Assembly: GCA_963920635.1 (NCBI GenBank)
Contig: OY987299.1
Coordinates: 21,406,901 to 21,470,900 of the forward strand
Direction of reading: 5' to 3'
DNA: 64,000 bases
Source: Pseudeuparius sepicola
Lineage: Eukaryota > Arthropoda > Insecta > Coleoptera > Anthribidae
The notes under the pieces were generated by a model, which saw nothing but the letters and a program-made list of their open reading frames with translations, made no database searches and was not told the origin of the DNA. Below, piece after piece: positions 3,092-26,209 of the stretch. The position numbers and the translations under genes are program-made. Numbering within the stretch: the first letter of the stretch is position 1; each line of letters opens with the position of its first letter.

Positions 3092-6000
3092 GTGAAAAAT
3101 GGCCACATCCGCAGAGTTATCGATGACGAAGTCAAATCCCTGGTGTTGGAAATATCCGGAACCAATGTTGCCACCACATTCATCACCTGCCCTATCAAAC
3201 CCAGGGCCTCTTTAGGCGTCAAGCTCCCTTTTTTGGTCATGGTTATCAAGAATATGAAGAAATATTTCACTTTCGAAATACAAATATTAGGTATAAGGTA
3301 TAACTGGCTAGTGTAGCAGTTTCTTCTGTAAGGTTTTATTATTTTAGACGATAAAGACATGAGAAGGCGGTTTAGAGTGTCAAATTTTCAATCTACCACT
3401 AAAGTGAGGCCTTTCTGTACCACCATGCCTATTGGGTTGAGTGCAGGCTGGAACCAAGTGCAGTTTAATTTAGCTGATTTTACTAAAAGGGCCTACGGTA
3501 ATGTATTTACTAGAAGCTTTTATTAATTTTGACGCATATTTTAAGTTAATTCCGATATGAAATAGACACAAACAAACCGCTCTGAGTGCTACCTATATCA
3601 GATTATGAGACGACGCCCGCCAGCTGACTGATACAAAGCATATAGGTGAAAACTACTTAATACTTTGAGATACTATAGTAACGTCAGAAGAAATCTTGTT
3701 TACATTTATTTAATGTGGAAATTAAATAATATACTTTTAGCATTATATTATAATTTTTAAAGATAGACACTAAGGTACATACCTAGGTATGTAATGTAAT
3801 AATCCTTGGTTATTTCTCTGAGGTAGGTACCTACTTACCGCAGATCAGGAATTTATGAAACATATACGGGGTAATATGAGACTTTGGAAAAATTCGAAAA
3901 ATATTAATCAGAGAGAGAATTAACCATAAGGGTAGGTACATACAGGGTGTTTTGTTAAGGGTGAAGAGGTAAAAAATCTTTTTAAGTAATGTGGTCACGA
4001 AAAATCGCTGGAAATTATTTTTAAGTTCGTAGGTCGGCCGCTAGGGGGCGTATTCGAAACAGTAAATTTAAAAAATGAGTTTTCTCAAAAAAATTACTTA
4101 TGAAGGGATGTCAAAAATAATTTCATTGCACTCCTCAGAAAATTCTAAAGAATTTTCGTTAAGGATTTTGATTGTCCAAAAAGGTCATTTAGAATTTCGT
4201 GGTCACCACTTGAGGGCGCAATTTGAAAAAGTTCCCTTTTATTGCAATTTTCTCTGAAATTTTAAATGCAATGACATATTCATTCTGTTATAATAGAAAA
4301 GTATATTAAATTTACAACCCAAAATACCCAAGGCCCAAATCGATATCTTCATTAGTTTCGGAGTTATCGCCAAAAAAATAATTATTATTAACATGTTATT
4401 TGAAAGAAGAAGGTAGGTATTTGTTATCAAAGATTTCCGTGGTCAAGCATGCCATGAAATTAATAAAAATTTGCTTGAGTTTTTGGCAAATTGCTATTTT
4501 TCTTACTTTTTATTCCGTTAAACGTATTTCTAATTTACTTACCTTACCTGTCATGTCATATTGATATGAAATTATCTCGGAAATCATCTAGCCATGAAAC
4601 AAAAAGTAGACGTCACATAAATCAAGCTTTAATAAGTTTTGTGTCAAATCTTGAATTTTTGTAAATTTTGAGTTAAAATTGTGTATTGCATTTATTAAAA
4701 AATGCCTTATACGAATGCCGAGGCTTACGATATGCTTGCCGTATATTTTTAATATTTTGAATATGCTCTACTTGCGGAACGTGACCAAACGATCTCGTTT
4801 CATGGCTTACTAGATGATTTCCGAGATAATTTCATATTCGATTCGACAGGTAATTAGGTAATTAGAAATACGTTTAACGGAATAAAAAGTGAGAAAATAG
4901 TAATTTACGAAAAGCTCAAGCAGATCTTTATTTATTTCATGGCATGCTTGACCACGGAAATCTTCGACAACAAATACCTACCTTCTTCTTTCAAATAACA
5001 TGTTAATAATTATTCTTTTGGCGATAACTCCGAAACTAATGAAGATATCGATTTGAACCTTTAGTATTTTTTGCTGCAAATATAATCTACTTTTCGACTA
5101 TAACAGAATAAATATATCATTGCATTTAAAATTTCGGAGAAAATTGTAATAAAAGGGAAATTTTTCAAATTGCTCCCTCTAGCGGTGACCACGAAATTCG
5201 AAATGACCTTACTGGACCATCATTTGATAGAACAAGGCAAGCTCTCTTCAACAAGCCCAAATTCTACCAATTCGGTTAAGCCAAACCGGAGTTAGCAGCA
5301 TTTTCTCAAGTCAAGGTTTATGCGCCCGTTACACCTCTAATTGAAGAGCTAGAGCAAAAAATTCTTAATGAAAATTGTTCAGAATTTACCGAAGGGTGCA
5401 ATAAAATTATTTTTCATATACCTTTAATAGTCATTTTTATGAGAAAACTCATTTTTCATATTTACGGCTTTGAATACGCCCCCTAGCGGCCGACCTACGA
5501 ACTTAAAAATAATTTCCAGCGATTTTTCGTGACCACATTACTTAATAAGATTTTTTTCCCAAAGCTCCAGGCTATTAGTTCCTGAGATATGGTATCTCTT
5601 CACCCTTAATGAAACACCCTGTACAATGACAGCTCTACCTAACCTATACAAATCCCTTTTGTAATTTTGTAGATGATACTGAAAAAATTTTTCTAATGAA
5701 AGTATGAAAAAACATTTCAAAAACCCCCTTTTGTTCTCTGGTATATTTCTAGGGTACCTACCTACTCGTACTTATCAGTAGATGATACTAAAAATCCCTG
5801 TGCATTTAGGATCAACATACATGGAGACAATAAGAGTACAAATACACGCCAATGTTAGGATAAGAAGAATCTACTTCACCGACCATCTCTATACCGAAGA
5901 TGAAATGCCAAATGAATTCAAACTGTTCGCGCCTGGTGCTGCCAAGAAGATGGAGAAGGCTCCTTCTAAAACGGACAAACCCCCAGAAGGTTTGGAAGAT

Positions 6001-9000
6001 CTAAAATAGCGGAAAACCTTTCTACTGATTCTGGTTGTGTTAGGTAAAGGGGAAGAAGTTCCGAAAATGCCAGAGGAGGAGATCCAGCCGCCTCCGAGTC
6101 CTGTCGGTGAAGCTGAAGAGCTCGCAGCACCTCCGAGTCCAGTTACTGAAGGGGAGGGCGAAGCACCGCCTCCAGAAGAAGGGGAGGAAGCTCCTGCAGA
6201 GGGTGCACCAGGTAGAGTATATCCTTTCAATGACAGGATTTTCATTATGCAGGGCGATTAAGTTTTATTTTCACAAACTTTAAGGAAATAATAATATAAT
6301 ACATTTATTCAAAAAACAACACTTTATTACGTAATAACCAAAATATAAACAATATCAAATAAGTAATCGAAATATATAAAACTGGCAATGTTTAAAAAAT
6401 CTTTAATTATTTTTTCAAGATGATCCCAGCTACTTCCTTCATAAAAAAATAACAGTATCATCCGCAAAATCTGTTCTCTAGATTTTAATCTAAAAATATC
6501 ATTTTAAAATTTTTAAAAATTTGCGATTTACTTACATATTATTATTTAGTAATTTTTCATTAAATTTAATAAAGGCATAGAAACCGTTTTTTATAATTTA
6601 TACAACAAAAGTTTATGATTGACGGTATATTGAATACTTTAGTTAAATCCAAAAAATACATACATATACAGGGTGACCTTATTTCGAGTCTGCATGAGGA
6701 TCTTGGTTATCTTAAGAGATACGAGGTCGGTTAAATTGGGGCAAAGTTGCGGGATTTGCTACCGAGTAATATGGTAAAAAAAATTTGGCTGGCTCTTCTC
6801 GTTTTGAAAATAATGCGAAAAAACTGAAAATTGTCGTTTTCGTTTTTATTTTTTTAAACGAAAACGAATGGTCCTGGACATTTCTAAGAACATTATTAAG
6901 GCACTTTTTTACAAGGAATCTAAAGATGATCTTGCATTTTTTTTCTCGCCTCCCTGGACAAAGATACGACGATCAACTTTTATTTTACTTATTAGCGCCA
7001 TATTATTATGCTTTACTTTGTTTTTCTTGCCGTAATATCAAATTAATTGTTTTTGCATAGAGTGCCATGGATACGTAAGCCTCATAATGTTTGACGTTTT
7101 TGCATAGAGAGCTTTGGAAACATAAGCCCCATAATGTTTGACATTTCAGCATATAATGCCTTGGAAACATAAGCCCCATAACATTTGATAGTTTAGTACA
7201 ATTTTAAATGTCACGGATACTTTATTTTACTGAAAAAAATTTCATTTTCACATTAAGGAAAGCGTGACATGATTCAAATGTATTATTCCTCAAATATAAA
7301 TGACGTCGAAGGGATATTGGACGAGCCATAAACAATTTAAAGAAACGTGTCGCATTGTGCCTTGAGGAACAAGGAGGACAAATTGAACATTTATTGTAAA
7401 ATAGGATTGTATCCCAGAAAAGGACGAATCAGAAGTGGCACTTGCTTTCGGCGCCTTTGATGTCGCGATTCCAATTTCCCCTCTCGCGCATAGGAAATGA
7501 ACTCTCCGCCGTTGACATCTGCGCATTGGCCACGCCCACCGTAGTTTGGACAGAGTAGAACTTGCCCATTGCACGGCCAGGTCCGGGCTATAGAAAATTT
7601 TGTGTTTTATATAGCAAAATTAATTTTTAGAATAGTAAAGTTTTTTTCTGGGATTAGATCTAGTTAAATTTGAATCTCCAGAAGTGATTTTAAGTAGGTA
7701 TTTTACTGACGAAAAAAATATAAATATTAATATTTTACTAAAGAGAAAAATACATTTTTTTATTGTACATGGAAATTTCACAATATTTCCTCTTTATTAT
7801 TTTATACTTACCTATATTAATTAGAAACAACTATGATTTAGGTTCAAGTGAACTATTCTACTTGGGTGGTTGAAATATTACAATATTTCAATCGACTTGC
7901 GTCCAAACTCATAGCTTGGCAATTAATTTGTTTTTTTATATAGATCCATAACAATTATTATTTGCAAAATTGGTTGACCTTCATATCACTGGTAGTAAAA
8001 AAAGGTTATTTATCAAAAATGTTTATTACTAAAATCTATAAAAAAAATTCAAAAACAATAGCACATATAAAATATAATACCTATAAATACAAAAGATATT
8101 ATAAACTACTTACGTACATATTATGCACATGCACACTATACATTATCAACTTAGCCTAATAATGACCCCTGGCAGCACTTATAAATGTAAATTTCGAAGT
8201 TTATAATTTTTATTAGTTTTATTAGAAACAATATCACGATTTAAAAATTTTAAAGAAGAATAGATTCTAAATCTTACATAAAGGGATAATAAATAGGCAT
8301 GATTAAAACTAGGGCATGGATGTTGATATGAAATGTTTTGCAGCTTATTTTTTAATTTCACACCAACATTTTCTTCTAAAGCAAACTTTGGAAAGAGGGT
8401 ACAAAAATTAACTTCGAGAGTTTTAATATAATTTAGGAAATTATCAGGAGGTGAAAATATAAATGTCCAAAGGTTTCGTTACCACTTGATTTGTATGCTT
8501 TAAAATAAGTAAACAAATCAGTATCCCCTAATGTATGACGTTTACAATATTTAATACAAACTTCACATGAATGTTGTTCCAAGCACTTTCTTAATAAATA
8601 TCCACAAACATATGATATACTATTTGATTCATGTAGTTCGAAATCAATAAAACTTAAATCAGAAAAAATAGATCTTGCATTTCCCACAACAACTTTGTTG
8701 TAAATTTGTGTATGTTCGGTGGTTACGTATGACAATAATGAATCAAAATCCTCAATACAATTAGCCCCATCCGCGTGTTGGAAATAATTTAAACAAAATG
8801 ATTTTTTGAAAGCCCTTTCGCATTGGATGGGGGTTGGATTCAAGCAATTTCCCCCTTGCTGCCTAATAGTGCCGAAAAATTTTTCGAGACAATCTTGATT
8901 TAAGCGTCGAGTGTATAAGGAACTAAACTCTAAACAATGAAATTTTTCCCAAAGACCTAAAAATGAATTTGTTGTGATTTGCCACCCTTTCAAAAATTTA

Positions 9001-12000
9001 ACTTTATTGGTAACCTCTATATTTTGTTTTAAAATTTTAATATTCTCAAAATATGTAAACATTTCCTTTAAAAAATCGACTTGGTAATCTGCTCCTTTGA
9101 AAGGTCTATTGTACTTGTATTACTGCCTGATATTTTTGAGGAATTTAAGATATCAAATAACTTATCAATTTTTTCTACAAATGACACTGTAGCGTTTGCC
9201 GAAGGGGGGAATTGTCCGAATTCAATAAAGGAATTAAGTGCCGCAGCTACCATTGCGCTGAAAACTTGGACGGCTAAACTAACCTTCAGTTTTTTAAAAG
9301 GATTCGAATTAATGTGTTCATCTGTAAATTTTGGACACAGCCGAAGAGCCAAAGGCTTATGTTTTTGTTTATTATAAATTTGGTCAATACCTATACGTTT
9401 TATTTGTACATCCTTCAGAGGTTTCGAATGTGTAATTGAAAAAATTATTTCGTGTTGATTTTAAGAGATGCGGCACATCAAAAATATAAAATATTTTTTC
9501 GCTATCGACATAAAAATGTGAAGAGTTTGGAGAGATACCAACTGATTTTGAAAATTGTACAAAATTTGATCCTTGATCAGACACTAACGCACTTACTAGT
9601 AATCCTACAGATTTAAGTTTCCTTATTGCTTCAAAAATAATAAATTTTAATTCCTCCCCTGAACAAACCGTGAAGGTGTAGGCAACTTACCTCAGAAAAA
9701 CAATCTTAGAGTTCTCGCGCTAAACTCACAGTGCCTGAATCCCGGAAAAGCATCTATACTTGAGTCATACATGATTGACAAGGATTATGATTTCCTATGT
9801 ATTTCTGAGCATTGGATGACTGATTGTGATCACTTAAGGGCTATAAACATGGGTGGTTTTTCTCTGATTAGCGCCTTTTGTAGGTCTACCTATATCCATG
9901 GTGGCTGTGCTGTCTTTGCAAACACCAAACACTCTTGTAAATCACTTAACCTTGAGACTTTCTCAATTGAGAGACACTTTGAGATCTCAGGTGCATGTTT
10001 CGACAAGTCACAAATAATAAGTGTCTATAGGTCACCATCACCTCATGGCAATTTTGATATTTTCTGCGAGGGGCTGGCCCAGGTATTAAGTAACTTAAAT
10101 TACAGACAAAACATAATATTCGCTGGCGACTTTAATGTACATTTTGGTACAAATGAGTATGAGGCAATTGCAGTAGAAGGTATTTTTAACTCATTTGGTT
10201 TGTCACGCACTATCTTTGACACCACTAGAAAAGCTTCCTGTCTGGATAATATTTTCTCTAATATTGATACCAATAACTATAAAGCAGAAGTAATAGATTT
10301 TTCCATCTCTGACCACAAACCTCTGTCTTTCGAGCTCCAGTCTGAGTCTGTGCCTGTTGAGAAGACAAACATAATTTATCGGCCTATAACCGATCAGGGT
10401 TTAATGGCTTTGTATGATTTATTTGATGGCTACGATTGGGAGTTCTTGAATGATATAACAGTTAGTCCTATTACGCAGTTTGATAAGTTTATAAGCATTC
10501 TACAGAACGCTTGTGATATAGCATTTCCCGAAAAGAGCAAAACTGTCAATATTAATTCTGACAACTCATTTAAGATACATTGGTTCACTGATGAAATACG
10601 ACAAAACAGGGAGAGTCTTAAGCTCTTAACAACTATTCACCATCGTAATTCTGAAATAGTGAGTAGTGGTGCATTGAGGAAATATAGGCGTTTTTATAGG
10701 TCTCAAGTACATAAAGCTAAGAAAAACGCAAATGACATGCATATATCCAATTCTAGAAACAAAAATAAGGCAGTGTGGGATGTTATCAGGAATAACAATC
10801 CTAGGTCAAAGGAACAATCGTCGCCATCTCTTTCTGCCCAAGATTTTAATACACACTTTGCTACTATTGCTGATACTGTTAGACAGACTCTACCTAATAG
10901 TGTCAGAGATCCACTCACCTACCTCCATGGAATTGATGGAGCTGTTTCAAGTGCGGGCTTGACCTTTTCTTTTGATTCTGTTAGTATTAACGATGTAAGA
11001 AATGCTATGGCTGGGCTCAGTAATAGCCCTAGCAGGGATGTGTATAATTTCAACATTAAAATTGTGAAAGCGTTAAAAAACTTAATTGTCTCTCCTCTGT
11101 GCAGATTGATTAATCAATGCATTGCTGGAAATGTTTTCCCTGACTGTCTTAAGATTGCTAGGGTTGTGCCCATCTTCAAAAAGGGGAATGTCTGCGAAGT
11201 TAACAATTATCGCCCAATCTCGATTGTGCCCATTTTTGGTAAAATCTTTGAGCATCTATTGAACACACAACTGGTAAAGTATTTTGAGAATAACAACCTC
11301 TTTGCTCCAAACCAGTTTGGTTTCCGAACAGGAAAGTCGACTTCGAGGGCTGTTCTAAGTTTGGTACAGCAGGTTCAGCGATCATATGATGACAATAAGT
11401 TTGTACGGGTATGCTTTTACGACCTGACTAAGGCCTTTGATTGTATTGACCATCAACTCTTGATTGAAAAACTGACCAGGTATGGCTTTAGCAGAGACAG
11501 TTCTCACTTGATTGGATCCTATCTTGGGGGTAGAAAGCAATATGTCTCGGCCAATGGTAGTAAGTCTGAATTGGTAGGTTTAAAATATGGAGTTCCCCAG
11601 GGCTCTATCCTGGGCCCAACACTGTTTTTAATTTACATAAATGATATCACATTTATAGATAACCTCAATCTCGTCTTGTATGCAGATGACACAACTTCCA
11701 TAAACATATTGGATGCTCCCAATACTGTCAACCAAAACGTTGATGATTCTGGCTTTCGTATTGAGCAGTGGTTTCTTTCAAATCGCCTCTGCATGAATGC
11801 TGGTAAAACACAAATTCTAGATTTTTCCTTGAAACCTGCAATCACTAACTTCAGCCCTGTTAGCTTTCTTGGATTGTATCTGGACAGCAGATTGTCGTGG
11901 GAAGAGCAAGTTAATCAACTTATTAAGAGGCTGAATAGAAACATGTACCTGATTCGTAATCTCCTAAACAATGTCTCAACCAAAGTACTTATGGACACCT

Positions 12001-15000
12001 ACTATGGACATTTTCATTCTCACATAATGTATGGCATACTGCTGTGGGGCCATTGCCCACATGCCACAAGAGCGTTTGGTGTGCAAAGAAGATGTATCAG
12101 ATTGATGGCGGGTATTGCATTTCGTGAACCTTGTAGAGACAAGTTTATCTCTTTTGGTATTCTTACTCTACCTAGTGTGTTCATACTCGAATGCCTTCTC
12201 TACCTAAAAAGCAACATTGATGACTTCAAAACAAACTCACATTTTCATCATTATAACACTAGAGGAGGTGAACACCTGTGCATTCAATACCACAGGGTCA
12301 ATAAAGCTAGAAGTGGTCATAATTATCATGCCATTAAATTCTATAATGTGCTCCCCGAAGTTGTCAAAGAGCTACCCACAAAATTATTTAAATCTAAACT
12401 GAAAAGTTACTTAAAGTCTAAAGCTTTCTTTAGCATGGACGAATTCCTTGTTGCAGACTTCAGTGATTTGTCGTTGTCAGTCATGGCAGGCTAAAATGTG
12501 ATGTGTGAGGCATCTGTATGTTGGTCTCCTTTTAATGTGTAATCTCCACTAGTTTATATCCTATTCATTTTTTTTTTGTTGGATCATATTTATATAATTA
12601 ACTAGGTTTTAGTGTGTATGTGTCATTTACTGCTTTTATCTTATTTTATTCTCATTATTTTATGAATCTGACTTGTGAAAATACTACTATGTATGTATGG
12701 CATCAATAAATTATAATAATAATAACAAGTATCAATAAAGAAATAAGCAACTGGTTGCTTCCACTTAGCAAATATTGCTCTAGCCATAATAGCTAAAACA
12801 TATTTAGCAGGAGCATATCTTTTTTCCTTCAATGTATTATGAAAGCCAACAATGGTATCGGAAGATCTATTGTAAAATAAAAACATTTTTAATGACATTT
12901 CGCCAATACAAAGAATGCACTGTTTTGAAGAACCCTCTAAATTTGTAGCTTTTGATTTAATAACCTCAAAAATGAAACTGTTAAGACCTGCAGTTATATG
13001 CCATTTGCTAGTTATTCTTTGAAGAGTGCTTTTAGATGGCAAATAAAGTGGTTTCATTAAAAATCTATAAGCATTTGGGCTTAGAAAATAAATTGTTAAG
13101 GAAAATTGTTTCATATCTGAAGAGTAACGATATCCCTGTGGATCTTTTTTTGGGATTTTCTAAATAATGCCTTACAAATAGTAGCATTGAAGCAGACAGT
13201 TTTTTTCTCACAAATGGCAAGAAATTGTTCGTCATTTATTTCAGTGTCGGCACTGTCGACAGCTTGCTCCAACTTCGGATGCAACTTTCTTTGGAGTTTT
13301 TTTATTTGTAACTTTAATGAATGCTTTCTCGGACTATGTGCACTCAAACTAAGAGAAGTTTGTTGACTAGCATCTAAAAATAGAATTATTCAATAACAAA
13401 ATAAGTAATACAAAAAATTACAATATATGTACACACACCCAAACTTATAATATGAAATCACTTAATATTTATTACAATTTATATTGTCGGGTTTTTCACA
13501 TTTAACTATTTTTGTTAGTAAACACTTTTGACTTTCCATGACATAATTTTTTTGACAAAAAAAATTATCGCAAATAATGCGTGATGTCATATAAGTTTGG
13601 GTGTGTATACTATAATAACAGTTTGTGAATATATATCATTACCTTTTGATGCAACTGAAAATTCGGTAATGCTGTGAAGATCGCCTATAGGTGACTGTGA
13701 CAGATGGGGTGTACTTGGTTGATCCAAAGGTTGAGCGATCGAGACTGGTTGATCAAGTTCTTGTTGAGGTTCTAACAAAGTCAAATTGCTGCATACAGAC
13801 ACAGAAGGACTCTGTGAAGAAGCCTCATCGATATAACCTAGTAAAAAAAAATAAATGCAGCAAAATTACAAGTATCAGCAAAAAATACATATTATTATCT
13901 AATAATGAAGGGGTAATTATGGGGTCAAAATGTCAAGAAAATCGGGCGGTGCATACACTAATTTCCATAATTACCAATGAAGGTACTTACATGATGAGAA
14001 CACAGTTGGTATTGCTGTTTTCTTTAGCCCAGACTTCGACTGGTTTGCAAACATACTATTTTCAAAGTGCATTGAACAAACTTTATAATTAATAAAAAGC
14101 TGTGTGGGTGTTTTTTTCTAACAAATCCTGCCGTCCACACTTTCTCGTCCATGCATAACACCTTGAAAAAAAATTAAAAACCATAGTTAGGTAGGTATTA
14201 TCAGTAGGAAACCATTTGTGGGTTTTCTGGGGTAGGTAATACTCCAGTAAAAGGGGTAGTACCTACGTAGGACATAAAATTTATAATACCTAAGGATATA
14301 ATAATGTGGTAACAAGGTAGGGACAAACGACACATAGGTATGTACCTACCTGTTTTCATCAGCAGGTATTTTGAAAAAACTTATCCCAACATTCCTCGTG
14401 TTGTTAGAACATCCACGAACACAGCAATAATTGCTGGGCCATTTCGTCACAAAACCTAAGCACAAAGTGGGTTTTCTGGGGCACAATGCACTAGTGTAAA
14501 TACAGCAACGAAGTATTCGAAGTAACAACACAAGCAGTCAAGTTGAGCTGAATACATATTGTACACCTTATCTGGTCCCTGTTTTGGATACTTTTATCAC
14601 AGTCATGATAATAATACTGGGCTTTTTTACTTAGAAATTGGTAATCGTTTTTCGTTTTATTGTTTACGTTTTATAAGGAGTTTAACCTCAATTGAACATA
14701 CTGACGCTGTCTGGCGTCTGGCGTTAGGTGGCGCGTCAGTCGTAGGCCACGAACGACGTTGCCGGACTTCGTCAGCTTTTATGCCTGACAATTTCCTTAA
14801 ATTCATTTAGCTATTTTTATCGCCTTCAATTTAATATAAACCAAAATACTATCAAGGACTAACATTTTTATAAGTAAATTATCATCGATTTCATTTTATA
14901 CTAAATTAATTTGCATTATATTTTTGTGGGTTGCCTTGGTTACCGGCTCCCGACTGGACGATCTGGCAGTACCGCAAGAACGGAATCTGTGGCGCCGCGC

Positions 15001-18000
15001 CGCGCTGTTGTCAAGCATTCCGCTTTCATAATCAAGTCCCAGAAAACAGGGGTCAGGTTGTGGGTTTTCTGGGCTCAGATAAATAGAATAAATGGTTCGT
15101 AAAACATTATAATTTTATTACCGGCACACATTAGATAATATTAATTGCTTTCATATTAATTTTATTGGTATACCTACCCAAAATGAATAAATGATAGTGA
15201 AAAATATGTTGACATGTTTTAACCTTTCTAAGGATCTGGCGGCCTAGCAATACTCTCCGTCCCCACCACCTCATAAAAATACCCCTCTGCCCTCTTAAAT
15301 TAGCCAAGTGCCACTTCTGATTCGTCCTTTTCTGGGATTGTATATTCGTCTAGGTTTCTGTAGTTCTTTGTGTTTCCAGTTTGACTCTTTTAGTGTTAAT
15401 GTGTTACCTATATAGGTACGTTTGTGATTTATTTAATCAATAAATTTAACATTAACTGAATTTTTACTGAACCGTTAAACGATATTCCAAAGCACACTTC
15501 GCAACAATGGGTAACTAGGCTTATGTTTCCAAAGCACTCTATGCAAAAACGTCAAATATTATGGGGCTAACATCTCCAAGGCACTCTATGCAAAAACGAT
15601 TAATTTGATATTTGATATTACGGCAAGAAAAACAAAGTAAAGCATAATGTGTGACATATCATTTTAACCAGAAAAAATCCTCTTTGCAAAAATGCAAAAA
15701 TCCAATATGGCGCCCATAAGAAAAATAAAAGTTGATCGTCATATTTTGTCCAGGGAGGAGAGAAAAAATGCGAGATCATATTTAGATTCCTTGTAAAAAA
15801 GTGCCTTAATAATGTTTAACTTAGAAAGGTTCAGCGCCATTCGTTTTCATTTAAAAAAATAAAACCAAAAACGACAATTTTCAGTTTTTTCGCATTATTT
15901 TCAAAACGAGAAGGGCCAGCCAATTTTTTTTTACCATGTTACTCGGCATCAAATTCCGCAACTTTGACCCAATTTAACCGACCTCGTATCTCTTAAGATA
16001 ACCAACATCCCCATGCAAAGACTCGAAATACGGTCACCCTGTACATGGTTTTTGATTATCGATAGAACTATAAATTTTATTTGTTAAGTAGCAAATATCA
16101 TCAAAACCAAATTGCTTTTCAGATATATTTTTTTTAGGTACCTACTTTTCAATGCGATTTTTAAGAACATATTCAAAAACTAAAGAAATTAAAGTTATTG
16201 GTCTATAATGTTTAGTGGCTAATTTATCTACATTTTTAAAAATAGGTTTGAGTATACCTATTTTCCAAGTATTAGGAATTTCTGAAGTTTCTATAATTTT
16301 ATTTATTAGGAACGATATGGGTTTGGAGATTAATAGACCTTAAAATTTCCGAAGTAATATTATCCATAAAAATAAACTTGACGGGTAGCGGCTTGAACCC
16401 CGATTCTGCGCACATGAAGCAAGAATGCTCACCACTACACGAACGCGACAAGATTGCCGTGTTTGTATTCGTGAAACGTTCTGTCACTTATTATTTATAA
16501 CTACACTCACCTTCACGAAAACGGAGCACTTGCAATTTGTATTAAAAAAAGTGAAATTTTAATTCTTTGTGATGTTTTTTATTACAATAAGTTAAACACA
16601 AACAACAACACGTTTTAAGTAATTTCTAACAACAATAACTGAACGTTTATTTGAAAAGGAAAAGTGTTTTGTTACAATCAGGGACCCTTTAAAGACTTAA
16701 AGTACGGGGGCCCAGCATTATACTTTCCAAAGTGAGGCCATTTCTTTCTTTCCTCATTCTAATGGTCTCAATGATGCCAAATATGCCATTTTAGTGGAGA
16801 ATCTATGAATATACCAGGAACTTTGATTGTTAGTAAAAATTGACTTGAGACTTGACTTGACAATGTTCTGTCCAGTGGCGTAACTAAGGAAGAGTAGGCC
16901 CGTGTTCAAAATATCAGGTGGGCCCCTGTGTTTTTTTATGTTTGAAAGTGGTGTAAGAATAACAAACGCTGTACAGGATGTCTCATTTTCGATACTTTTG
17001 CAAGTTACATTTATATTTTGAAATTCTTACCTCCTAGTAAAAACCCGTGTACGTCACTGAATTCTACCTTAAAAAATCTATAACGGTCGATTTTTACCAT
17101 TTCAAGAAGTTAGCGTATAACGGCTATAGGGTGTTTAAAAAACTAAAGAGGCGGCATGAAAATTCTGTACACGAGCCTTTCTTTTTATGAAAAAATAGGT
17201 CAGTGTCCCGAAAACCGCAACTCCCTATTTCTAAAAATAAACGAGATACCTCGCAAAAGTATCGAATGGGACATAGAAAATAATCCAACTAAAACTTTGT
17301 ATTGACCAACAGTTAAAAATAATGCACATTGCTCACTACAGGTCGAAAAACGCCATTTTACAGGTCAAAATGTTGAATCACCATGTACGTTCTGTACAGA
17401 GTGATCCGAACTCGACGCCCCAGGCCTACTGCGGGAACACGAAAACTGAAAATAAAATTTCGAACAGGGGCTCTTAAATGGAATGGAATGAATGGAATTT
17501 TTTCTATTCACTAGGATCGTTTTTCCGAAATCTAACTAGCCATGAAAACAATTACGATAGTCAGAAATTATTTAAGAGTATGTTAGGGTGCCTTGTGCAC
17601 CATTACATTTGTTCGACTGCAGTATTTTTTAAATTGCTTGTTACTGACTTTTAATATTCTAGTTAAAAAAATTCAAGGGTGCACAAGACAACCTGACATT
17701 CTCTTAAATAATTTTTGACTATCAATTATAAATTTTGTACAATAAAAGATATCTTTTCGTACAAAAGTTGTTGAGAATGATAAAGACTTTCAATATTTAG
17801 GGAAAAATGGTATGTTTCTGGGGAAAAAAAATAATGATGACGTCACAGCGGCCATTTCCCCAAACAACAAAAAAGCTAATTTTCAGTCATAATTGGGCCT
17901 TATAATATAAGTATGGTAAGTCAGTGCCGATTTTGCTTATTTGAGAATTTGTCGCTATATTGCACCTTATTACCAGGTTCCTCAAACCATTTGTAATATG

Positions 18001-21000
18001 TATAGGTACGTACTTGAACTTTCTTCCCTTGTTGAATGGAGCTACCCAAAGAATAACTTTTACAGATTTCGGGATGGACTAATAAGATATTAGGTCTTGT
18101 ACTTAGTTCTAATCATGTAGTTTTTCTCGGTGCTCATTATAAAAATTTTTTGATTTTATTTCTCTCTCAAGGCACAGAATAAATAGCTCCACAAAGCTAT
18201 TTATTCTGTGCTCAAGGTAGGTACCTCACAAACTTAAAATAAACTTGTAGTCGTAAATAAAAACTCTTTAAAAAAAGACCTGACTAAAGCTACCTGCGCT
18301 TAATAGTTTAAAATTTTCGAAATACGATTTGTTTCGAACTACCTACTTATACGTAATGCCCACGTAATAGGAATTGTAGGATTACTAAAGGTGAGACAAG
18401 AAAAATCTGGTTGCAATTATTGGGACTACTACGACAGGCGGCCGCATTACCTTTAATTGACATCTGGAAGTTACTTAAAAATTGTGAACCATGATGGGAA
18501 ATATTTTGCCTTCTTTGGAATCTATGGCACTGGCATGTCACATAATGGATGGCAGTTAGTCACTGACATATAACATAACCTTAGCCCACTTATGTGGTCT
18601 CCTTGGAGTATACAGAAAACAAACTTCCCCTCAAGGCTTCACTTTTCCTATGTGATAGACTGACATGCTGGGTCCCCTTATTTTATAGTCCCTAAAAAAC
18701 AAGGGCGAAAAACCCCAAATTGGTACCTATACTGTGGCAAAATGAAACAAATTTCTAGCGAAAACTGGGGAGGCGCATTTTTAATAACGGGTGTTACCTC
18801 CACGTCCCACGTGCTCTAATCTAATAAGTTCGCATTCTTCGCACAAGCATGTCCCCAATATGTTCAATTGGGTTCGCATCTGGATTTAACGCTGGCCACT
18901 CCATTTACATCTTTTAAGTAGGTACTGTTGAGTGATTCTCACGATGTGAGGCCTGAGATTATCATATCGATCAGAAGAAAGTCATTTTCAATATAATCAA
19001 CATAGGGGACAATACAATCTTGGAGAATTTCAATGTATGTAGGTACCTGGCAGCAGTTATCGAGCCTCTTACAATGATGTACAACCAACGGATCAAAGGC
19101 CACGTGTTTTGTTTCATGATTTTTAAAAAGATGTTATTGTTGGCACATTCAACGTTTTCAGTTTTTTTATACCATTTAGGTTATTTTGTAAATATAAGTA
19201 CCTCAAAGCATATACATATATACGATATCAGAAATCTATCAGAAACTATTTATTATGAATTACAAAATAGGAAAAACTGAATTTAAGAAATGCCAATGTA
19301 AACAAATTGCCTCGTCTTTTCCCCCCGATCCGCTAATGTATAGAAGCAAAACAAAACCCGTGTTATAGTATTTGTATTAGCGTAAAAGTCATCTATTCAT
19401 ATAAAAAATTATATCGTAAATAAGCTATGTGTGTATTTTAAATTATTTCAGGGTATTTCTGAATAATAAATTGAAATATTTGCTCCCTCTAACCAAGACT
19501 CAATGGGGAAAAAAGGTTTCTTAGTTTAAAGATACTAACATTTCCAATAAACTTACCATCGCACACATTTGCAAAGAGAAAAAAATTATATGAAAATCGA
19601 GGGCTAATTTCTGAAGTTGTACCGCTCCTCGAAGTTTGTAAAAATAAAAATGAAATTTATTAAGCGATGACTATAATATTAAGCCTCCATTTACTGTTGT
19701 TTTAGAAGAAGAGGGTCAAGAGCCACCGCCAGAAGGTGAGGAAGTACCAGGCGAAGGAGGTGAGGAACAACCTAAAGTAGAAGGTGAGGAAGAACCTAAA
19801 CCTGAAGGGGGAGAAGGTGAAGGAGAGGTACCTGCTGAAGAAGTGGAAGGAGGTAAGAAATATTTTTAAAAGTAGTAATTTGTTGAAATTTATATTAGGT
19901 ATCTTTTATTGGATAATTTTGATTTATTTTTATGAGCTTTCATTTAACTTCACTTATTAGTATATAGGGTGTAACTGAACTGATAGTCAAAAATGAAACC
20001 ACGTATTCTTGGAGTCAAAATAACGGCACTTCTTCATATATTTTTTCTCCTACGGGCCATAGTTTTTTTTATACAGAGCGTAGAAATTTAGAGAAAAATA
20101 CACATACTTCTTAGTATCTCTAGAAGTATACGAGATATTTTCTTCAAACTTGGCGTGTCACATGAGCGGATGAGCTGTCAAATTTAAGGTTAATATGAAG
20201 CTTCTGAGGCCCCCAATTGCGGAGATACAGGGTGTTATTAAAATTAATTAGTTCAGAAAAATATGCATACCCTGTATAATCGCATTTTTTTAATTTGTTT
20301 TGAGTGGTAAATTCAATGGTTAACAAAAAGTATCTCTTAGTATTTTTTCATATTCTTAGCCGCAATGCTGCAATAAACAAGTCATTTTAGGAATAAATCT
20401 AACAATCTGTGGATGTAAATTAAACATGGCATTATTTGAATCATTTGGCTGTCAACTTTACACTTTAATATCAATATTTTGAAAAATGATATTTTCATTC
20501 GAAGAATTGACTGATATGCACTTTTGCTATGGACTTGCCAATGGCAATAATAAACATGCGGAAACGCATAGTTGCGTGTATTGAAAGAGACGGCGGTCAA
20601 TTCGAACATTTAATAGTTTAATTTTCTAATAGCATTACGTTTCTTTTATTATCGTTTTTGCTTTTGTATTTTGTTAAATAAAGTTTAATTATTGACAATC
20701 ACAGATTGCTACATTTATTCTTAAAGTGACTATTGTTCATTGCGGCGTTGCCGTTCTTTGAAAATAATTAAGAAACGGCTGCGAATATGAAAAAATACTA
20801 AGAGATATTTTTTGTTAACCATTCTATTCACCACTCAAAACAAATTTAAAAAATGCGATTATACAGGGTATTCATATTTTTCTGAACTAATTAATTTTAA
20901 TAACACCCTGTATCTCCGCAACTGGGGACCTCAGAAGCTTCATGCCAACCTAAAATTTGACGTCTCATCTGCTCATGTGACATGCCAAGTTTGAAGAAAA

Positions 21001-24000
21001 TATCTCGTATACTTCTAGAGATACTAAGAAATATCTGTATTTTTCTCCAAACTTCTACGCTCTGTATAAAAAAAACTATGGCCCGTAGGAGAAAAAAATA
21101 TATGAAGAAGTGCCCTTATTTTGACTCCAAGAATACGTGGTTTCATTTTTGACCATCAGTTCAGTTACACCCTGTATGTATATGCTTGCAAGCTGAATTA
21201 GAACCACTTCCTGACATCCTATTGAGCTGAAATTTTGCATACACCTTTAGTTCCGGTGACAATATGCAATACTCGATATTGTAATACTTTCAAAATGGCC
21301 GCCGCTCCAAGATGGCGCGGATGATGTATTTTTGTCAACCCCCTTAATTAATATGGGTATCAAATGAAAAGGCTTGAAAAGTAGAAAACGATAAAGTCAG
21401 TAACATCACACTAAATTCAATATGGCCTCCGCTCCAAGATGGCGGATTACCTATTTGATACCCAACATTGGTATCAAATGAAAGGCCTCGTCGGGTAGAA
21501 AACAATAAGGTGAATAACTTCATACGAAATCCAATATGTCGGCCGCCCAAGATGGCGGACTAAATTTCTTTACCACTCTCCTGACTAAAAAGCACAAAAT
21601 AAAATTGAAAATAAAAAACCTTTTTAAAAACAAGCTTTTCCACGTAAGTACTAAAACGAATAAAATAATTCAATTCCAAATTGCGCCAAGTTTTTGCAAA
21701 TTCAAAAGCTTGTCGCGCGAATTATAAAGAAAAAATATATAGGCAAATAGGTACTTGCTTATCAACCAATCATTGTTCAATAAAATTAATTGGTACCTAC
21801 TTTGTTCAACATTTCGCGCGACAAGGTTTCAATTTTCAAAAACTTGTCGCAATTTGGAATTGAATTATCTTAACGAAAACCTAAACTTATTTTATTCGTT
21901 TTAGTACATGGCTTAAATAAAAGCTTGTTTTTAAAAAGGTTTTTTATTTTCAATTTTTTATATTGCGTTATTACGCTATACAAAAGTGCCTGTCAAAAAG
22001 TTACTTAGCAAAATTTGAATGTATCATTTAAATAAATATACCTACCTATACCTTATGGTTATAATAGTTGTAAAAAGTCAAAGAACGGAAAATGCACATG
22101 GGAAGGAACACTTTATTTTTTGCTATACCTAGAGAGAATTAAAGGATGAAAAATGTTCTCTTATTATAATAGAAATATCATGGATGCTAAATACAAACAT
22201 ATTACAATGACCTTAGGCAAAGAAGTACCTCGAAAACTGTTAGAGATGCTGTTTTAGAATATTTTACATTTTTATTATTTTTGGCTGAACGCTGAACTTA
22301 TTCCATGTCTTCAGTAAAAAAACTAGTTAACTACAGTGTTGTCCCAGGATACGTACCTATATATAACTATAATACCTACTTGTAAACTTTTTTTTATTTT
22401 ATGGAAAAAGTCACTATAGAGAGTTTTGCTTGTCTTGACACCATAGAATCTTAGTTAAAATTTAAAATGTAAAATATACTTGAGTAAAGTGGTCTTATTT
22501 CAGTGTTTACATAAATAATTTGTTTGCAATATCATAAGCAACCTAACCAAAAACGAAAAAGTTTGAATTAAATGTACCATTTTTAAATGTTATTGTTGTT
22601 TGTGTTGCTTATGATATAGCAAACAAATTTCTTAACATTTTCTCACACTCCTTGAAATAAGAGCACTTTATTTGATGACTTTACCCTTAAGAAAATTTTA
22701 GATTTATAAATTTTTGGCATACGCTGTGTTATTTTTGGAAAATTTAGCATGTTTAGATTGTATGGTAGGTACAAGCGACAAGCAAAACTTTTTACAAAGA
22801 GTGACTTTTTCCGTAAAATCAAAAATAGAAACGTTTACAAATAGTTATTATAATAATGTATTTAATTGCATAGTTTCTTTTATATTTGGAAAACAACAAA
22901 ATACAAAAAAGTATATATCAATAAATTGGGACGAAATGTGTATGTACTTACAAAAACAAAATAATAAATTATCTTTGCTGTCTGGAAATAAAAGCTACTG
23001 TAGCCGACAATCTATTTACAATAGTTGTTTTTGCAATTTTTCGGTTTTGAAAGTTGAATTCCGCCAGACCTACAACAAATATCCAAGTATTTAAATAATC
23101 TTTCGATTTAAATCGATTTTTCTACTACAATCATTATCTTCAATCTTTTTCTTAAGTGATGATTTTTTTTATTTATGATATACTTTTCTTGTGTCATTTG
23201 ATTTAAATCATTTACAAGGAGTTTAAATCTTTCAAAACAATTTTAAACCAATTTAGAAATCCTCTTTTGGATTTACAGTATCGTTTAAATCATATAAAAC
23301 TATTTACATCATTCTTTTCGATTTAAATCATTTATAAGTTAATAAATCTTTCGAAAAATGATTTATGCATGATAAATAATTGGAACACACAAAGTAACCT
23401 CGTAGGCCAGGGTAGATAATTTTTGAGAACAAAAAAATCTAGAACAGCATGACACCCATTGGAAAAAGAAGAAAATATATCAAAAAGAACAGAAAAAATA
23501 ATTTAAGGGCGATTTGAGGTACGGAAGTTGTAGTGGAAAACGGTTTATCATGATTTCCGGCAAAACTGCAACTCCTATCGAAAAAAGTTGAATGGCAAAG
23601 TTGTAGGCAATAAAAAGATCTACAACTTTTGTATTTATACTTTTTTCACATAACCTCAAAATATCCGCGAAAAATCGATATAACCGATTTTTTGGTTTTT
23701 AATTTTTTTCTCCCACAAAAAAATTTTTCTTTCCACAAAATTTGGTGGAAACTTACCTTCTCGTCCCGAATACGCTGTAATTTTTTCGAATCAAAATATT
23801 TATTTTTACCCCTTTTTTTATTTTAAACCGAAAAAGTAACCTCATTTTCAATCAAAAATGCCCACGTCAAAAAAGCTGCTTTTTAAAAAAAGTCGATTCG
23901 CTTTTTATTTGTTGAAACCTCTACTTTCTGATGGTGTAAAAAAAAATATACATCACTATGGAAAATTTTCTCAGAAAATGCAAAAAACGAAAAAACTCGA

Positions 24001-26209
24001 TTTCAAAAAAAATTTTTAATCATTGTTTAAAATTTTGCGGTATTTACTGAAATTTACACTTTATTTAGGTACTTGAAAAATTATGTCCATGTTATATTGA
24101 TAAACCACGAAATTGCAAATCGATATACAATGTGTCCCGGATAAGAATAAACAGCATGGGGATCTTGCAAACGGTGAGAGGTAGAACAACGGTTAAATGG
24201 GGAAAAAGTTGCGCAATTTTGAGGTCAATAAAATGGTACAAACAGATTTCTAATATCTCTTTTCGTTTTTGAGTTATTTTGAAAGAAGTGAAATTTTGCA
24301 TTTTCGATTTTATTTTTTTCTGAAGTTGTTATCACAGATAGGAAAAAAGAAAAACACTTTTTTTTCTTATGTCACTTTTTAACGGGCTTTAAGATGGCGT
24401 TTTTAGATTTATTCTACAACATTTCGTTTTTTGAGAAACCATCTTCAAATTAATTTTTTTAAATACAGGCCTGGATTTTTTTGCAGATTTTGAAAACACT
24501 TTTCATTCCAAATACCATGATGTATGACACGAAATATTTTTAAAATGTTTTAAGACAATTATAGTGAAAATTTCTTTTTTTCCATTTAAATACAGGGCCG
24601 CATTAGAAAGAAGTGAGTAAATTTTTCAAGTACCTAATTAAAGTGTAAATTTCAATAAATAGCGCAAAATTTAAAAAAAAAAATTCGAAATCGAGTTTTT
24701 TCGTTTTTTGCCTTTTGTGAAAAATTTTCCATAGTGATGTATATTTTTTTACACCATCAGAAAGTAGAGGTTTCAATAAACAAAAAGCGAATCGACTTTT
24801 TAAAAAAAGCAGCTTTTTTGACGTGGGCATTTTCGATTGAAAATGAGGTTACTTTTTCGGTTTAAAATAAAAAAAGGGGTAAAAATAAATATTTTGTTTC
24901 GAAAAAATTGCAGCGTATTCGGGACATAAGAAGGTAAGTTTCCACGAAATTTTGTGGAAAAAAAATTTTTTTGGTGGGAGATAAAAAATAAAAACCAAAA
25001 AATCGGTTATTTCGATTTTTCGCGGATATTTTGAGGTTATGTGAAAAAAAGTGCAAGTACAAAAGTTGTAGATCTTTTTATTGCCTACAACTTAGCTATT
25101 TAGCTTTTTTCGATAGGAGTTGCAGTTTTGCTGGAAATCGTGATAAACCGTTTTCCACCACTAAAAAATCACCCACTACAACTTCCGTACCTCAAATCGC
25201 CCTTAAATTATTTTTTCTATTCTTTTTGCTATATTTTCTTCCTTTTCCAATGGGTTTCATACTGTTCTAATTTTTTTTCACTTTTTGCCATTTTCAAAGG
25301 CTTTTAGGCCCTGGCCTATCGATTTAATAGACATGCGAAAATTTATATTTTATTTAAATAATTTGAAATTAAAGTTTAAATCATTTTCAAAAAGATTTGT
25401 TGCAGCTCTGAATACCGCAAACACCATCCTAATATCTCGATTCGTTAGACATATAGGGAGATTTTTGTTTTGTCGAGTTTCTTAAATGTATCAACTTTTT
25501 TGTGAGGATATTTTTGATTTTTTAAAAAATTGTTTGTGTTCATTGTTTTACGTATAGTGGTGTAGAGATATTATTTTGGTTATCGGTTTTAAAGTAACAA
25601 ATTCTCAAATGTCTCAAATTTGAGATATTGAGCACAGTAGCTACTTTTTCTCTATCTCTTTGGAACAGGATAAACCCCCCCCTCCTCCCAAATTATCCAA
25701 TTTGGGACACCCTGTACATGTCTTTTTAAATGTTAGTTAATCATTCGGACAGAATTCTTATTTATTTTATAAAACCAATGGTCGAGTAAATTAAGTCACT
25801 ACACAATTTCCTCCTAAAACAAAAGTGGTATCGAAAAGACCAATATTTCAATTTTCCTTTACCTACTTTAGAAGTTAAAGCTGAAGGAGAAGAAGGAGGT
25901 GAGGCTCCGGCAGAGGGAGAGGCATCTCCACCCGCCGAAGGCGAAGGCGGCGAGGCCCCGTCTGAAGGGGGTGAAGAACCTGCAGCCTCGGAGGAGGCTG
26001 CTCCAGCTGAAGAAGCAGAGCCAACTGAGGAGACAACTGTTACTGAGGAGCCAGCCCCAACGGATGAACCTGCTACAACGGAGGAACCAGCCACGACAGA
26101 GGAACCACCGACGACTGAGGAACCGGCGACGACAGAGGAGCCGGCCATGACAGAGGAGCCTGCAACTACAGAGGAACCGACAACAGACGCTGAGTCACCA
26201 GAAGAGTAG
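3092..26209 (+). CDS. CFAP20/Bug22-like protein with long acidic tail (5' incomplete)
   Basis: Six exons are visible: 3092-3290, 3348-3497, 5810-5989, 6044-6211, 19706-19852 and 25872-26209. All have AG/GT borders and consistent phase (each internal junction leaves one base), giving 393 residues to a TAG at 26207. The first three exons encode a CFAP20 (DUF667) domain, with family blocks [48 protein letters not shown] and [18 protein letters not shown]20 proteins bind microtubules of cilia and sperm tails and are usually about 195 residues. This protein diverges from canonical Bug22 and adds about 215 residues rich in Glu, Pro, Gly and Thr, ending in a repeated EEPATT-type hexapeptide. That suggests a duplicated, possibly sperm-specific axonemal paralogue (inference). 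The exon for the N-terminus is not in view. A poly(A) signal AATAAA lies at 26233. Confidence 0.92.
3943..5621. mobile_element. 1.7-kb palindromic TA-flanked element
   Basis: The two ends are CAGGGTGTTTTGTTAAGGGT and its near reverse complement, each flanked by TA. Nearly the whole element folds back on itself. For example GGTCGGCCGCTAGGGGGCG near 4032 faces its complement near 5480, and AACATGTTATTTGAAAG near 4390 faces its complement near 4990. The centre is around 4690-4790. No coding potential is visible. It lies in a CFAP20-like intron. Confidence 0.9.
5990..6043 (+). other. 54-bp intron of the CFAP20-like gene
   Basis: The intron starts GTTTGG, contains CTACTGAT as a likely branch site and ends GTGTTAG. 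Splicing it out keeps the frame and joins two E/P-rich stretches. If it is retained, translation ends at the TAG at 6007-6009 after EGLEDLK, giving a short CFAP20-sized protein. Confidence 0.75.
6212..6668 (+). other. start of the 13.5-kb intron; possible alternative 3' end
   Basis: If the donor at 6212 is not used, the frame runs on to TAA at 6259-6261, adding [18 protein letters not shown]-rich sequence with AATAATATAATA near 6285 follows, which could support early polyadenylation. Otherwise this is intron leading to the inverted-repeat element at 6669. Confidence 0.45.
9662..12728 (+). mobile_element. non-LTR retrotransposon (Jockey/CR1-like), 5' truncated
   Basis: The inserted body is about 9667-12723, flanked by the 5-bp duplication AACAA (9662-9666 and 12724-12728). 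Joining the flanks restores the P-type transposase reading through YFFIDTC into [13 protein letters not shown], which confirms the insertion site. The body starts directly inside an open frame leading to the endonuclease, so ORF1 and the 5' UTR are missing. The 3' UTR is short (12495-12723) and ends in an AAT repeat rather than poly(A). Confidence 0.92.
9771..12494 (+). CDS. LINE ORF2: endonuclease and reverse transcriptase
   Basis: This is a 907-codon open frame without a stop. The N-terminal 220 residues are an apurinic-type endonuclease (EEP fold): SEHW with Glu13, GDFN at 119-122 and SDH near 180. The central part is a reverse transcriptase with [37 protein letters not shown] and the catalytic YADD at 637-640. 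The C-terminal part ([29 protein letters not shown]) is shared by Jockey/CR1/BS-type elements. The frame is open upstream of this ATG to the truncation point (encoding [15 protein letters not shown]), so the true protein began further 5'. The protein would nick target DNA and copy its own RNA at the nick. The intact frame implies a recent insertion. The exact clade is uncertain. Confidence 0.95.
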   Translation: MIDKDYDFLCISEHWMTDCDHLRAINMGGFSLISAFCRSTYIHGGCAVFANTKHSCKSLNLETFSIERHFEISGACFDKSQIISVYRSPSPHGNFDIFCEGLAQVLSNLNYRQNIIFAGDFNVHFGTNEYEAIAVEGIFNSFGLSRTIFDTTRKASCLDNIFSNIDTNNYKAEVIDFSISDHKPLSFELQSESVPVEKTNIIYRPITDQGLMALYDLFDGYDWEFLNDITVSPITQFDKFISILQNACDIAFPEKSKTVNINSDNSFKIHWFTDEIRQNRESLKLLTTIHHRNSEIVSSGALRKYRRFYRSQVHKAKKNANDMHISNSRNKNKAVWDVIRNNNPRSKEQSSPSLSAQDFNTHFATIADTVRQTLPNSVRDPLTYLHGIDGAVSSAGLTFSFDSVSINDVRNAMAGLSNSPSRDVYNFNIKIVKALKNLIVSPLCRLINQCIAGNVFPDCLKIARVVPIFKKGNVCEVNNYRPISIVPIFGKIFEHLLNTQLVKYFENNNLFAPNQFGFRTGKSTSRAVLSLVQQVQRSYDDNKFVRVCFYDLTKAFDCIDHQLLIEKLTRYGFSRDSSHLIGSYLGGRKQYVSANGSKSELVGLKYGVPQGSILGPTLFLIYINDITFIDNLNLVLYADDTTSINILDAPNTVNQNVDDSGFRIEQWFLSNRLCMNAGKTQILDFSLKPAITNFSPVSFLGLYLDSRLSWEEQVNQLIKRLNRNMYLIRNLLNNVSTKVLMDTYYGHFHSHIMYGILLWGHCPHATRAFGVQRRCIRLMAGIAFREPCRDKFISFGILTLPSVFILECLLYLKSNIDDFKTNSHFHHYNTRGGEHLCIQYHRVNKARSGHNYHAIKFYNVLPEVVKELPTKLFKSKLKSYLKSKAFFSMDEFLVADFSDLSLSVMAG
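16042..16378 (-). pseudogene. non-LTR reverse transcriptase fragment
   Basis: The minus strand from about 16370 to 16140 encodes a reverse transcriptase piece with [16 protein letters not shown], then [16 protein letters not shown]. These match the fingers region of LINE reverse transcriptases (W-K-x-a-x-i-x-P-i-x-K followed by YRPI). It is only about 75 residues, has no YADD motif, and is an old fragment unrelated in detail to the intact LINE at 9667. Confidence 0.7.
16381..16450 (-). repeat. tRNA-like stretch (SINE head or tRNA pseudogene)
   Basis: On the minus strand there is an A-box-like GTGTAGTGGTGAGC and, about 35 bases on, a B-box-like GGTTCAAGCC, spaced as in a tRNA. The outer bases do not form a convincing acceptor stem, so I call it tRNA-derived rather than a functional tRNA gene. 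Confidence 0.4.
16504..19110. mobile_element. decayed Tc1-like element, split by another insertion
   Basis: 16504-16675 matches the left terminal repeat of the intact Tc1 element at 52208 (CACTCACC, ACGGAGCA, AACAACAACA, TTTTAAGTAATTTCTAA), preceded by TA. The match breaks off after TTGTTACAAT and resumes near 18715 with TGGCAAAATG, followed by sequence (18760-19110) matching the C-terminal half of the minus-strand transposase, including the complement of the PIEHV region. The copy carries many substitutions and small gaps and has lost its right end. Confidence 0.85.
16678..18714. mobile_element. 2-kb insertion inside the Tc1 relic, with internal hairpins
   Basis: The segment separates two parts of a Tc1 copy that are contiguous in the intact element. 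It starts CAGGGACCC; a loosely similar inverted CTGGGTCCCC occurs near 18668, so its exact ends are uncertain. It contains an inverted repeat at about 16977-17275 (CATTTTCGATACTTTTGC against its complement) and, near 17395, a fragment whose start resembles sequence near 50720. No coding region is recognised. Confidence 0.55.
19111..19705. other. intron sequence, nothing recognised
   Basis: AT-rich sequence ending in the TTGTTTTAG acceptor of the CFAP20-like exon at 19706. I see no element ends or coding exon. Confidence 0.4.
19965..21174. mobile_element. 1.2-kb palindromic TA-flanked element
   Basis: The ends are AGGGTGTAACTGAACTGA and its complement (the first base is T at the left and the expected C at the right), each next to TA. 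The arms pair along most of the length, for example GTATTCTTGGAGTCAAAATA near 20004 with its complement near 21120, and the GCCGCAATG block near 20358 with its counterpart near 20750. The reading frames in it are mirror images of each other and are not genes. Confidence 0.88.
21285..21560. repeat. imperfect tandem repeat, about 115-125 bp units
   Basis: Three units each begin with an AAnATGGCCGCC-like block followed by CCAAGATGGCG (about 21292, 21418 and 21532) and contain ATTGGTATCAAATGAAA-like sequence and GTAGAAAACnATAA. The units are diverged. They adjoin the hairpin at 21590-21960. Confidence 0.75.
21575..21962. repeat. hairpin with GCTTGTCGCG core
   Basis: Arms at about 21590-21720 and 21815-21960 are inverted copies (TTTTTAAAAACAAGCTTTT, GAATAAAATAATTCAATTCC and AAGCTTGTCGCGCGA with their complements). 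The layout resembles the hairpin at 58050-58382, which also carries an AAAAGCTTGTCGCG core next to a tandem array. Confidence 0.75.
22390..22825. repeat. inverted-repeat element of about 430 bp
   Basis: GGAAAAAGTCAC and GTTTTGCTTGTC near 22400-22435 reappear as complements near 22770-22815. Inside them TTTGTTTGCAATATCATAAGC near 22518 faces its complement near 22605. No coding content. Confidence 0.7.
23098..23400. repeat. degenerate GATTTAAATCA-rich stretch
   Basis: The palindrome-like word GATTTAAATCATTT and variants recur at least six times. Similar words resume at 25320-25400, on the far side of the palindrome 23403-25318, so that palindrome probably inserted into one larger repeat. Confidence 0.55.
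23403..25318. mobile_element. 1.9-kb palindromic element (TAGGCCAGGG ends)
   Basis: The ends are TAGGCCAGGG and its complement. The arms pair over nearly 900 bases, for example CCAATGGGTGTC-like sequence near 23453 against 25246, ACCGTTTTCC near 25150 against 23535, and the GACGTGGGCATTTT block near 24825 against 23862. The centre is near 24350. No transposase is encoded. Confidence 0.88.

What the first reader, a model, noticed from the sequence alone, without database searches (positions are those of the whole stretch)
6667..16043. Four-layer transposon nest inside one intron
Seen directly: a TA-flanked CAGGGTG element (6669-16041) is split by a P-type element (7413-15336, TSD ATTGTAT), which is split by a LINE (9667-12723, TSD AACAA), all inside the 13.5-kb intron 6212-19705 of a CFAP20-like gene. 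Each layer has its own target duplication, so the order of events is readable and the layers can be dated relative to each other.
Basis: seen in the sequence. Interest (0 to 1): 0.75.

Follow-up and report, generated by a model that had tools for sequence, protein, structure and literature searches.

The report
Four nested transposons in one intron
Inside one intron of a cilia-protein gene, four different mobile DNA elements appear to have jumped into one another in turn, and undisturbed copies of the outer ones elsewhere in the genome show the order; it is a clear example of an ordinary process.

Summary
The nest is real. A CAGGGTG long-inverted-repeat element (TA duplication) was split by a P-superfamily transposon (7-bp duplication), which was split by a LINE (AACAA). 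In the window's own 769-Mb genome, 8 of 9 other CAGGGTG copies fetched are contiguous across the P site, and 33 of 34 other P loci examined are contiguous across the LINE site, none carrying the LINE. That makes four transposon layers plus the intron. Private substitutions fall inward: 8.3%, 3.1%, 0.19%, 0.10%; the last two do not differ significantly, so only nesting orders them. The inner LINE is 5'-truncated. The P copy is damaged: a catalytic Asp is Gly, as at two other loci. Its 7-bp duplications resemble those of Galileo rather than the 8 bp of the Drosophila P element. Nested transposons are commonplace, so interest is modest.

The parts
6212..19705 (+). Host intron of a CFAP20-like gene
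   Evidence: CFA20_dom PF05018 in window:3050-3316, 3332-3526 and 5782-6009; GT/AG ends read from the sequence; no transcript evidence
6380..6666 (-). Layer 1 (oldest): decayed LINE reverse-transcriptase fragment, 3' part
   Evidence: Joined-flank search, translation, alignment with 6 relatives
16044..16368 (-). Layer 1 (oldest): same LINE fragment, 5' part
   Evidence: best seven other rows match 1-324/325 of 16044-16400 at 77-78%; contiguous with the left part at 18 other places
6667..6668 (.). TA target duplication, left copy
   Evidence: Single TA at the junction in 6 of 6 uninterrupted relatives fetched
16042..16043 (.). TA target duplication, right copy
6669..7412 (+). Layer 2: CAGGGTG element, left arm (contains a 47-bp tandem repeat at 7049-7188)
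   Evidence: 80 genome match rows, 40 of 1564 candidates scored; tandem repeat
15337..16041 (+). Layer 2: CAGGGTG element, right arm
7406..7412 (.). P-element target duplication ATTGTAT, left copy
   Evidence: 8 relatives have the homologous site once and read ATTGTCT
15337..15343 (.). P-element target duplication ATTGTAT, right copy
7413..9666 (-). Layer 3: P-superfamily transposon, 3' part of the transposase gene (GTP-binding domain, RNase H C-part)
   Evidence: PF21788, PF21789; 45 genome match rows
12729..15336 (-). Layer 3: P-superfamily transposon, 5' part of the transposase gene (HTH, RNase H N-part; THAP seen in a relative)
   Evidence: PF12017, PF21787; THAP PF05485 in relative L036
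7413..7444 (+). P terminal inverted repeat, left
   Evidence: Perfect 32 nt
15305..15336 (-). P terminal inverted repeat, right
12902..12904 (-). Transposase codon aligned to catalytic Asp230 of Drosophila P transposase; Gly here
9662..9666 (.). LINE target duplication AACAA, left copy
   Evidence: Single copy in uninterrupted P copies
12724..12728 (.). LINE target duplication AACAA, right copy
9667..12723 (+). Layer 4 (youngest): 5'-truncated LINE with an open endonuclease/reverse-transcriptase frame and an AAT-rich 3' tail
   Evidence: RVT_1 E 9.4e-28; 33 of 41 genome match rows (window included) span it nearly end to end at 99-100%, 40 of 157 candidates scored; truncation

Best explanation
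Four transposable elements entered one intron, one inside another. First, a LINE (now decayed; only a reverse-transcriptase fragment was found) came to lie in the intron. Second, a CAGGGTG long-inverted-repeat element, apparently non-autonomous, inserted at a TA inside it and duplicated the TA; cut-and-paste by a Tc1/mariner-type enzyme is inferred. Third, a P-superfamily transposon inserted near the middle of that element, duplicating 7 bp. Fourth, a 5'-truncated LINE inserted, by target-primed reverse transcription (inferred), into the transposase gene of the P copy, duplicating AACAA. Shown: the three inner insertions, their duplications, their order and the decline in divergence over the first three layers. 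Inferred: the enzymes and the mechanism of each step. No function for the nest is implied.
For: Layer 2 in layer 1: flanks joined at one TA are contiguous across the junction in 18 of 50 genome match rows, while the window's own copy is split into two rows; 6 of 6 fetched relatives carry a single TA there; the joined frame reads on across the join and aligns across it to the inner LINE's reverse transcriptase. Layer 3 in layer 2: 8 of 9 other copies contiguous at the site; both ATTGTAT copies in the window have an A where all 8 have C, as expected if that change preceded the duplication. Layer 4 in layer 3: 33 of 34 other P loci examined contiguous (L040 with a small deletion just beyond the site), L057 deleted across it, none with the LINE. 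Private substitutions: 50/606, 45/1436, 9/4853 and 3/3056; old LINE versus CAGGGTG p = 4e-6, CAGGGTG versus P p = 7e-21.
Against: P copy and inner LINE do not differ significantly in private substitutions (p = 0.39), so divergence does not independently confirm that step. Pfam found no reverse-transcriptase hit in the decayed window pieces or their join; that identification rests on relatives and the alignment. L010 does not continue across the P site. Among 15 P copies with both ends found, L051 has no matching duplication and L048 a mismatch. The copies compared were among the best-scoring, not a random sample, and 10 of the 44 other P match rows were not examined.
Confidence: 0.96

Rival explanations
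1. The inner elements are integral parts of one composite element that moves as a unit.
For: The layers lie contiguous in the window.
Against: Uninterrupted outer copies at every level: 18 places, 8 of 9, 33 of 34. Each inner layer has its own duplication.
Confidence: 0.01
2. The nest is an assembly artefact that joined repeats from different loci.
For: All elements are multi-copy, and no reads could be examined.
Against: Every inner junction carries a matching target duplication, and the 7-bp duplication carries on both sides a base absent from the 8 relatives compared. A misjoin would not be expected to produce this.
Confidence: 0.02
3. Only three transposon layers exist; the reverse-transcriptase similarity beside the CAGGGTG element is unrelated to its insertion.
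For: No Pfam reverse-transcriptase hit on the decayed window pieces or their join.
Against: Joined flanks align contiguously at 18 other places, with a single TA at the junction in 6 of 6 fetched; a frame from relative L072 hits RVT_1 at E 9.6e-30.
Confidence: 0.02

Closest known systems
Galileo (P superfamily, Drosophila)
   Same: 7-bp target duplications with occasional 8-bp ones and a near-palindromic target (Galileo GTANTAC; here roughly RTNNNAS from 12 copies); THAP domain and DDE and D(2)H motifs (PMC4168063 passages)
   Different: Galileo has long inverted repeats; here they are 32 bp. No tree was built against Galileo, so branch membership is not claimed.
Drosophila P element
   Same: Catalytic residues align to PDB 6p5a; HTH, split RNase H and GTP-binding domains
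   Different: Drosophila P elements duplicate 8 bp and are 2.9 kb (PMC7776569 passages); here 7 bp in 12 of 15 copies with both ends, and about 4.57-4.89 kb without the LINE.
Tc1/mariner-type non-autonomous elements with TA duplications (recalled)
   Same: TA duplication and inverted-repeat ends; no transposase frame noticed in the ORF list
   Different: Arms of about 460-530 bp; the mobilising enzyme was not identified.
Interruption-based transposon chronologies (recalled; only a search listing seen)
   Same: Order inferred from which element interrupts which
   Different: Nothing in kind; this is a single locus.

Membership tests
P superfamily of DNA transposons | RNase H-fold transposase with DDE aligned to D230/D303/E531 and a GTP-binding insertion | tested here: met
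   Family: PF21787, PF21788, PF21789; alignment of relative L036 to 6p5a, residue numbers counted by me along it. The window copy itself has Gly at the first position.
P superfamily of DNA transposons | THAP domain | tested here: met
   PF05485 in relative L036, split over two frames: one above the cut-off (41.8 against 23.9 bits), one below it (20.9)
P superfamily of DNA transposons | Terminal inverted repeats and a 7-8 bp target duplication | tested here: met
   32-bp repeats; 12 of 15 copies with a perfect 7-bp duplication, one (L052) with 8 bp, one with a mismatch, one with none
Drosophila-type P element | 8-bp target duplication | tested here: not met
   An 8-bp reading that uses the terminal G fits 2 of 15; one further copy (L052) has a plain 8-bp duplication
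Non-LTR retrotransposon (LINE), inner | Endonuclease plus reverse transcriptase, 3' repeat tail, target duplication, 5' truncation | tested here: met
   RVT_1 above cut-off, endonuclease hits below cut-off; tail and duplication; truncation
Non-LTR retrotransposon (LINE), outermost | Reverse-transcriptase domain | tested here: met
   RVT_1 in relative L072 and alignment of the joined window frame to the inner LINE; no Pfam hit in the decayed window pieces
Tc1/mariner-mobilised element | TA duplication | tested here: met
Tc1/mariner-mobilised element | Mobilised by a Tc1/mariner-type transposase | not tested
   No autonomous partner was sought

The most novel reading that the evidence does not exclude
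A recently expanded P-superfamily lineage with 7-bp duplications, apparently outside Drosophila, in which full-length copies with a mutated catalytic Asp (window, L035, L052) were themselves mobilised in trans by intact relatives.
Probability: 0.3. Interest if true: 0.4.

Novelty: new member of a known kind. Interest (0 to 1): 0.3.

Why it matters
It gives three insertion events in fixed order on top of an older LINE at one locus, with the uninterrupted state of each outer element found elsewhere in the same genome, so relative element ages can be checked without a molecular clock. It also shows a young P-superfamily family with 7-bp duplications and a very young LINE family in an unnamed animal genome. 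It does not change understanding of transposition.

Tried and rejected
Rejected: an 8-bp P duplication using the terminal G (fits 2 of 15). Rejected: the inner LINE as a full-length element; I first took the shared query start for its 5' end, but searches show that 11 of 11 other fetched copies extend upstream, 7 of them to a common end about 1043 nt further. Not supported: an RNA structure downstream of the LINE's ORF1/ORF2 overlap (z -0.28).

Trans-mobilisation of catalytically dead P copies is kept only as a possibility. The Asp-to-Gly change is shared by window, L035 and L052, but L052 does not group with the other two on the tree, and the window-L035 grouping itself has support 0.739; recurrent mutation or gene conversion is not excluded.

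Host order: only 2 of the 17 protein hits name an organism, a click beetle (50%) and the dragonfly Ladona fulva (45%, shorter coverage) ('click beetle' and 'dragonfly' are recalled).

Not obtained: a genome-wide search with the joined CAGGGTG/P site, one with the joined P/LINE site, and one with the P part 12724-15336; the tool answered 'busy' each time. The paper searches were not aimed at this locus and no claim of absence in print is made. PMC4168063 and PMC7776569 were seen as passages only; other papers only in search listings.

Rows dropped: the CAGGGTG alignment holds the window and 8 other copies, L008 being left out because no right end was found; the right ends of L002, L004 and L010 were found only with mismatches and may be misplaced, L002 was much more divergent (191 of 1184), and L010 was kept although it does not continue across the P site. 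The P alignment holds the window and 14 of 20 copies fetched at length; in 6 no right end was found in the stretch. The LINE alignment holds 12 of 41 match rows. The old-LINE alignment holds the window and 6 of the 18 spanning places. Of 44 other P match rows, 34 were examined.

Full report
The window lies in an unnamed 769-Mb assembly of 16 contigs. Of 17 protein relatives of the P transposase, two name an organism: Ignelater luminosus (50% identity) and Ladona fulva (45%). The host is probably an insect; its order and species were not established.

Observation. Three host frames hit CFA20_dom, so the CFAP20-like assignment holds; the intron ends are read from sequence only.

CAGGGTG element and P element. 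A search with the left arm gave 80 match rows, 40 of 1564 candidates being scored. Of nine other copies fetched, eight run straight across the P insertion point; L010 stops matching at it. At the site all eight read GATTGTCT, while both sides of the P element in the window read GATTGTAT. The A is therefore on both sides, as expected if it preceded the duplication. The P duplication is 7 bp: of 15 copies with both ends found (window included), 12 have a perfect 7-bp duplication, L048 has one mismatch, L052 has 8 bp and L051 has none. Across the 12 perfect ones the target is roughly RTNNNAS, close to Galileo's GTANTAC (PMC4168063 passages).

P element and inner LINE. Of 34 other P loci (20 fetched at length, 14 as 400-base pieces starting at the site; 34 of the 44 other rows), 33 are contiguous across the LINE site (L040 with a small deletion just beyond it) and L057 is deleted there; none carries the LINE. 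The inner LINE has relatives at 99-100%. All 11 relatives fetched continue upstream of the window copy's 5' end, 7 of them to a common end about 1043 nt further.

The missed layer. The flanks of the CAGGGTG element, joined at one TA, read in one minus-strand frame, with stops, through a reverse-transcriptase region; what I recall as motif A spans the join. The joined frame aligns across the join to the inner LINE's reverse transcriptase, 38 of 122 positions identical. The right flank matches other places from its first base. The joined flank is contiguous across the junction in 18 of 50 match rows, while the window itself appears as two separate rows. Six of six fetched relatives have a single TA at the junction, which also supports the TA duplication. 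Pfam gives no reverse-transcriptase hit on the decayed window pieces or their join but RVT_1 on a 234-aa frame from relative L072.

Dates. Private substitutions of the window copy are 50 of 606 (old LINE), 45 of 1436 (CAGGGTG), 9 of 4853 (P) and 3 of 3056 (inner LINE). Differences from the column majority are 72/606, 53/1436, 12/4853 and 5/3056 (same calls). Conditional binomial tests: old LINE versus CAGGGTG p = 4e-6; CAGGGTG versus P p = 7e-21; P versus inner LINE (3057 used) p = 0.39. The comparison copies were among the best-scoring, so these are relative measures, not absolute ages.

State of the P copy. The family has P-superfamily domains, and relative L036 aligns to 6p5a at the residues that PMC7776569 names as catalytic, D230, D303 and E531 (positions counted by me along the alignment). 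The window copy has Gly at the first Asp, a 15-nt deletion private to it among 15 aligned copies, and its last long frame is broken where 11 of 14 other copies have an open 317-aa frame. Among 34 other loci the codon is Asp in 31, Gly in 2 (L035, L052) and unreadable in 1 (L048). Gly copies at three loci suggest mobilisation in trans, but L052 is not grouped with the other two on the tree, so this stays unproven.

Verdict. The finding is correct and deeper than reported: four transposon layers inside an intron, with target duplications at the three inner insertions and an order demonstrated from uninterrupted copies. It is an ordinary kind of event.

Noticed in passing
L012-L022, just upstream of the stretch matching window 9667: The LINE family has an ORF1 with weak zinc-finger-like matches below cut-off and a U UUU UUA heptamer in 11 of 11 copies. 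In L017 it lies at the ORF1 stop where the ORF2 frame opens, and no ATG precedes the endonuclease region; in L014 the ORF1 frame ends earlier. A -1 frameshift is possible, but no downstream structure stood out.
   Followed up: partly
window 1-64000: TACAGGGTG occurs 37 times with at most 1 mismatch against 6.8 expected; other inverted-repeat elements have similar ends, such as 546-1273 and 3941-5623.
   Followed up: partly
window 23431-25277: A long palindrome (89%) whose interior, 24154-24319, is about 69% similar to the CAGGGTG arms.
   Followed up: no
window 52198-53823: Tc1-like element with an open 342-aa transposase frame and inverted repeats of about 147 bp at 94%; an 84% similar piece of its end lies in the host intron at 16497-16678.
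   Followed up: partly
L030 and L041 (G000:C1 near 51587145-51587153): Two P copies abut head to tail, separated only by 7 bp.
   Followed up: partly
window 13424-13614: Imperfect inverted repeat inside the P element (arms about 65 nt, 77%); whether it is a small inserted element fixed in the family was not tested.
   Followed up: no
window 14215-15076: Internal copies of a GTGGGTTTTCTGGG-like sequence resembling the P terminus (three close, a fourth weaker); possible transposase-binding sites.
   Followed up: no
window 35058-37388: Two adjacent long frames (301 and 474 aa), the second with a DUF7869 match below cut-off; perhaps another transposon gene.
   Followed up: no
window 58506-58979: Nearly perfect 122-bp tandem repeat, 3.9 copies at 99%.
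   Followed up: no
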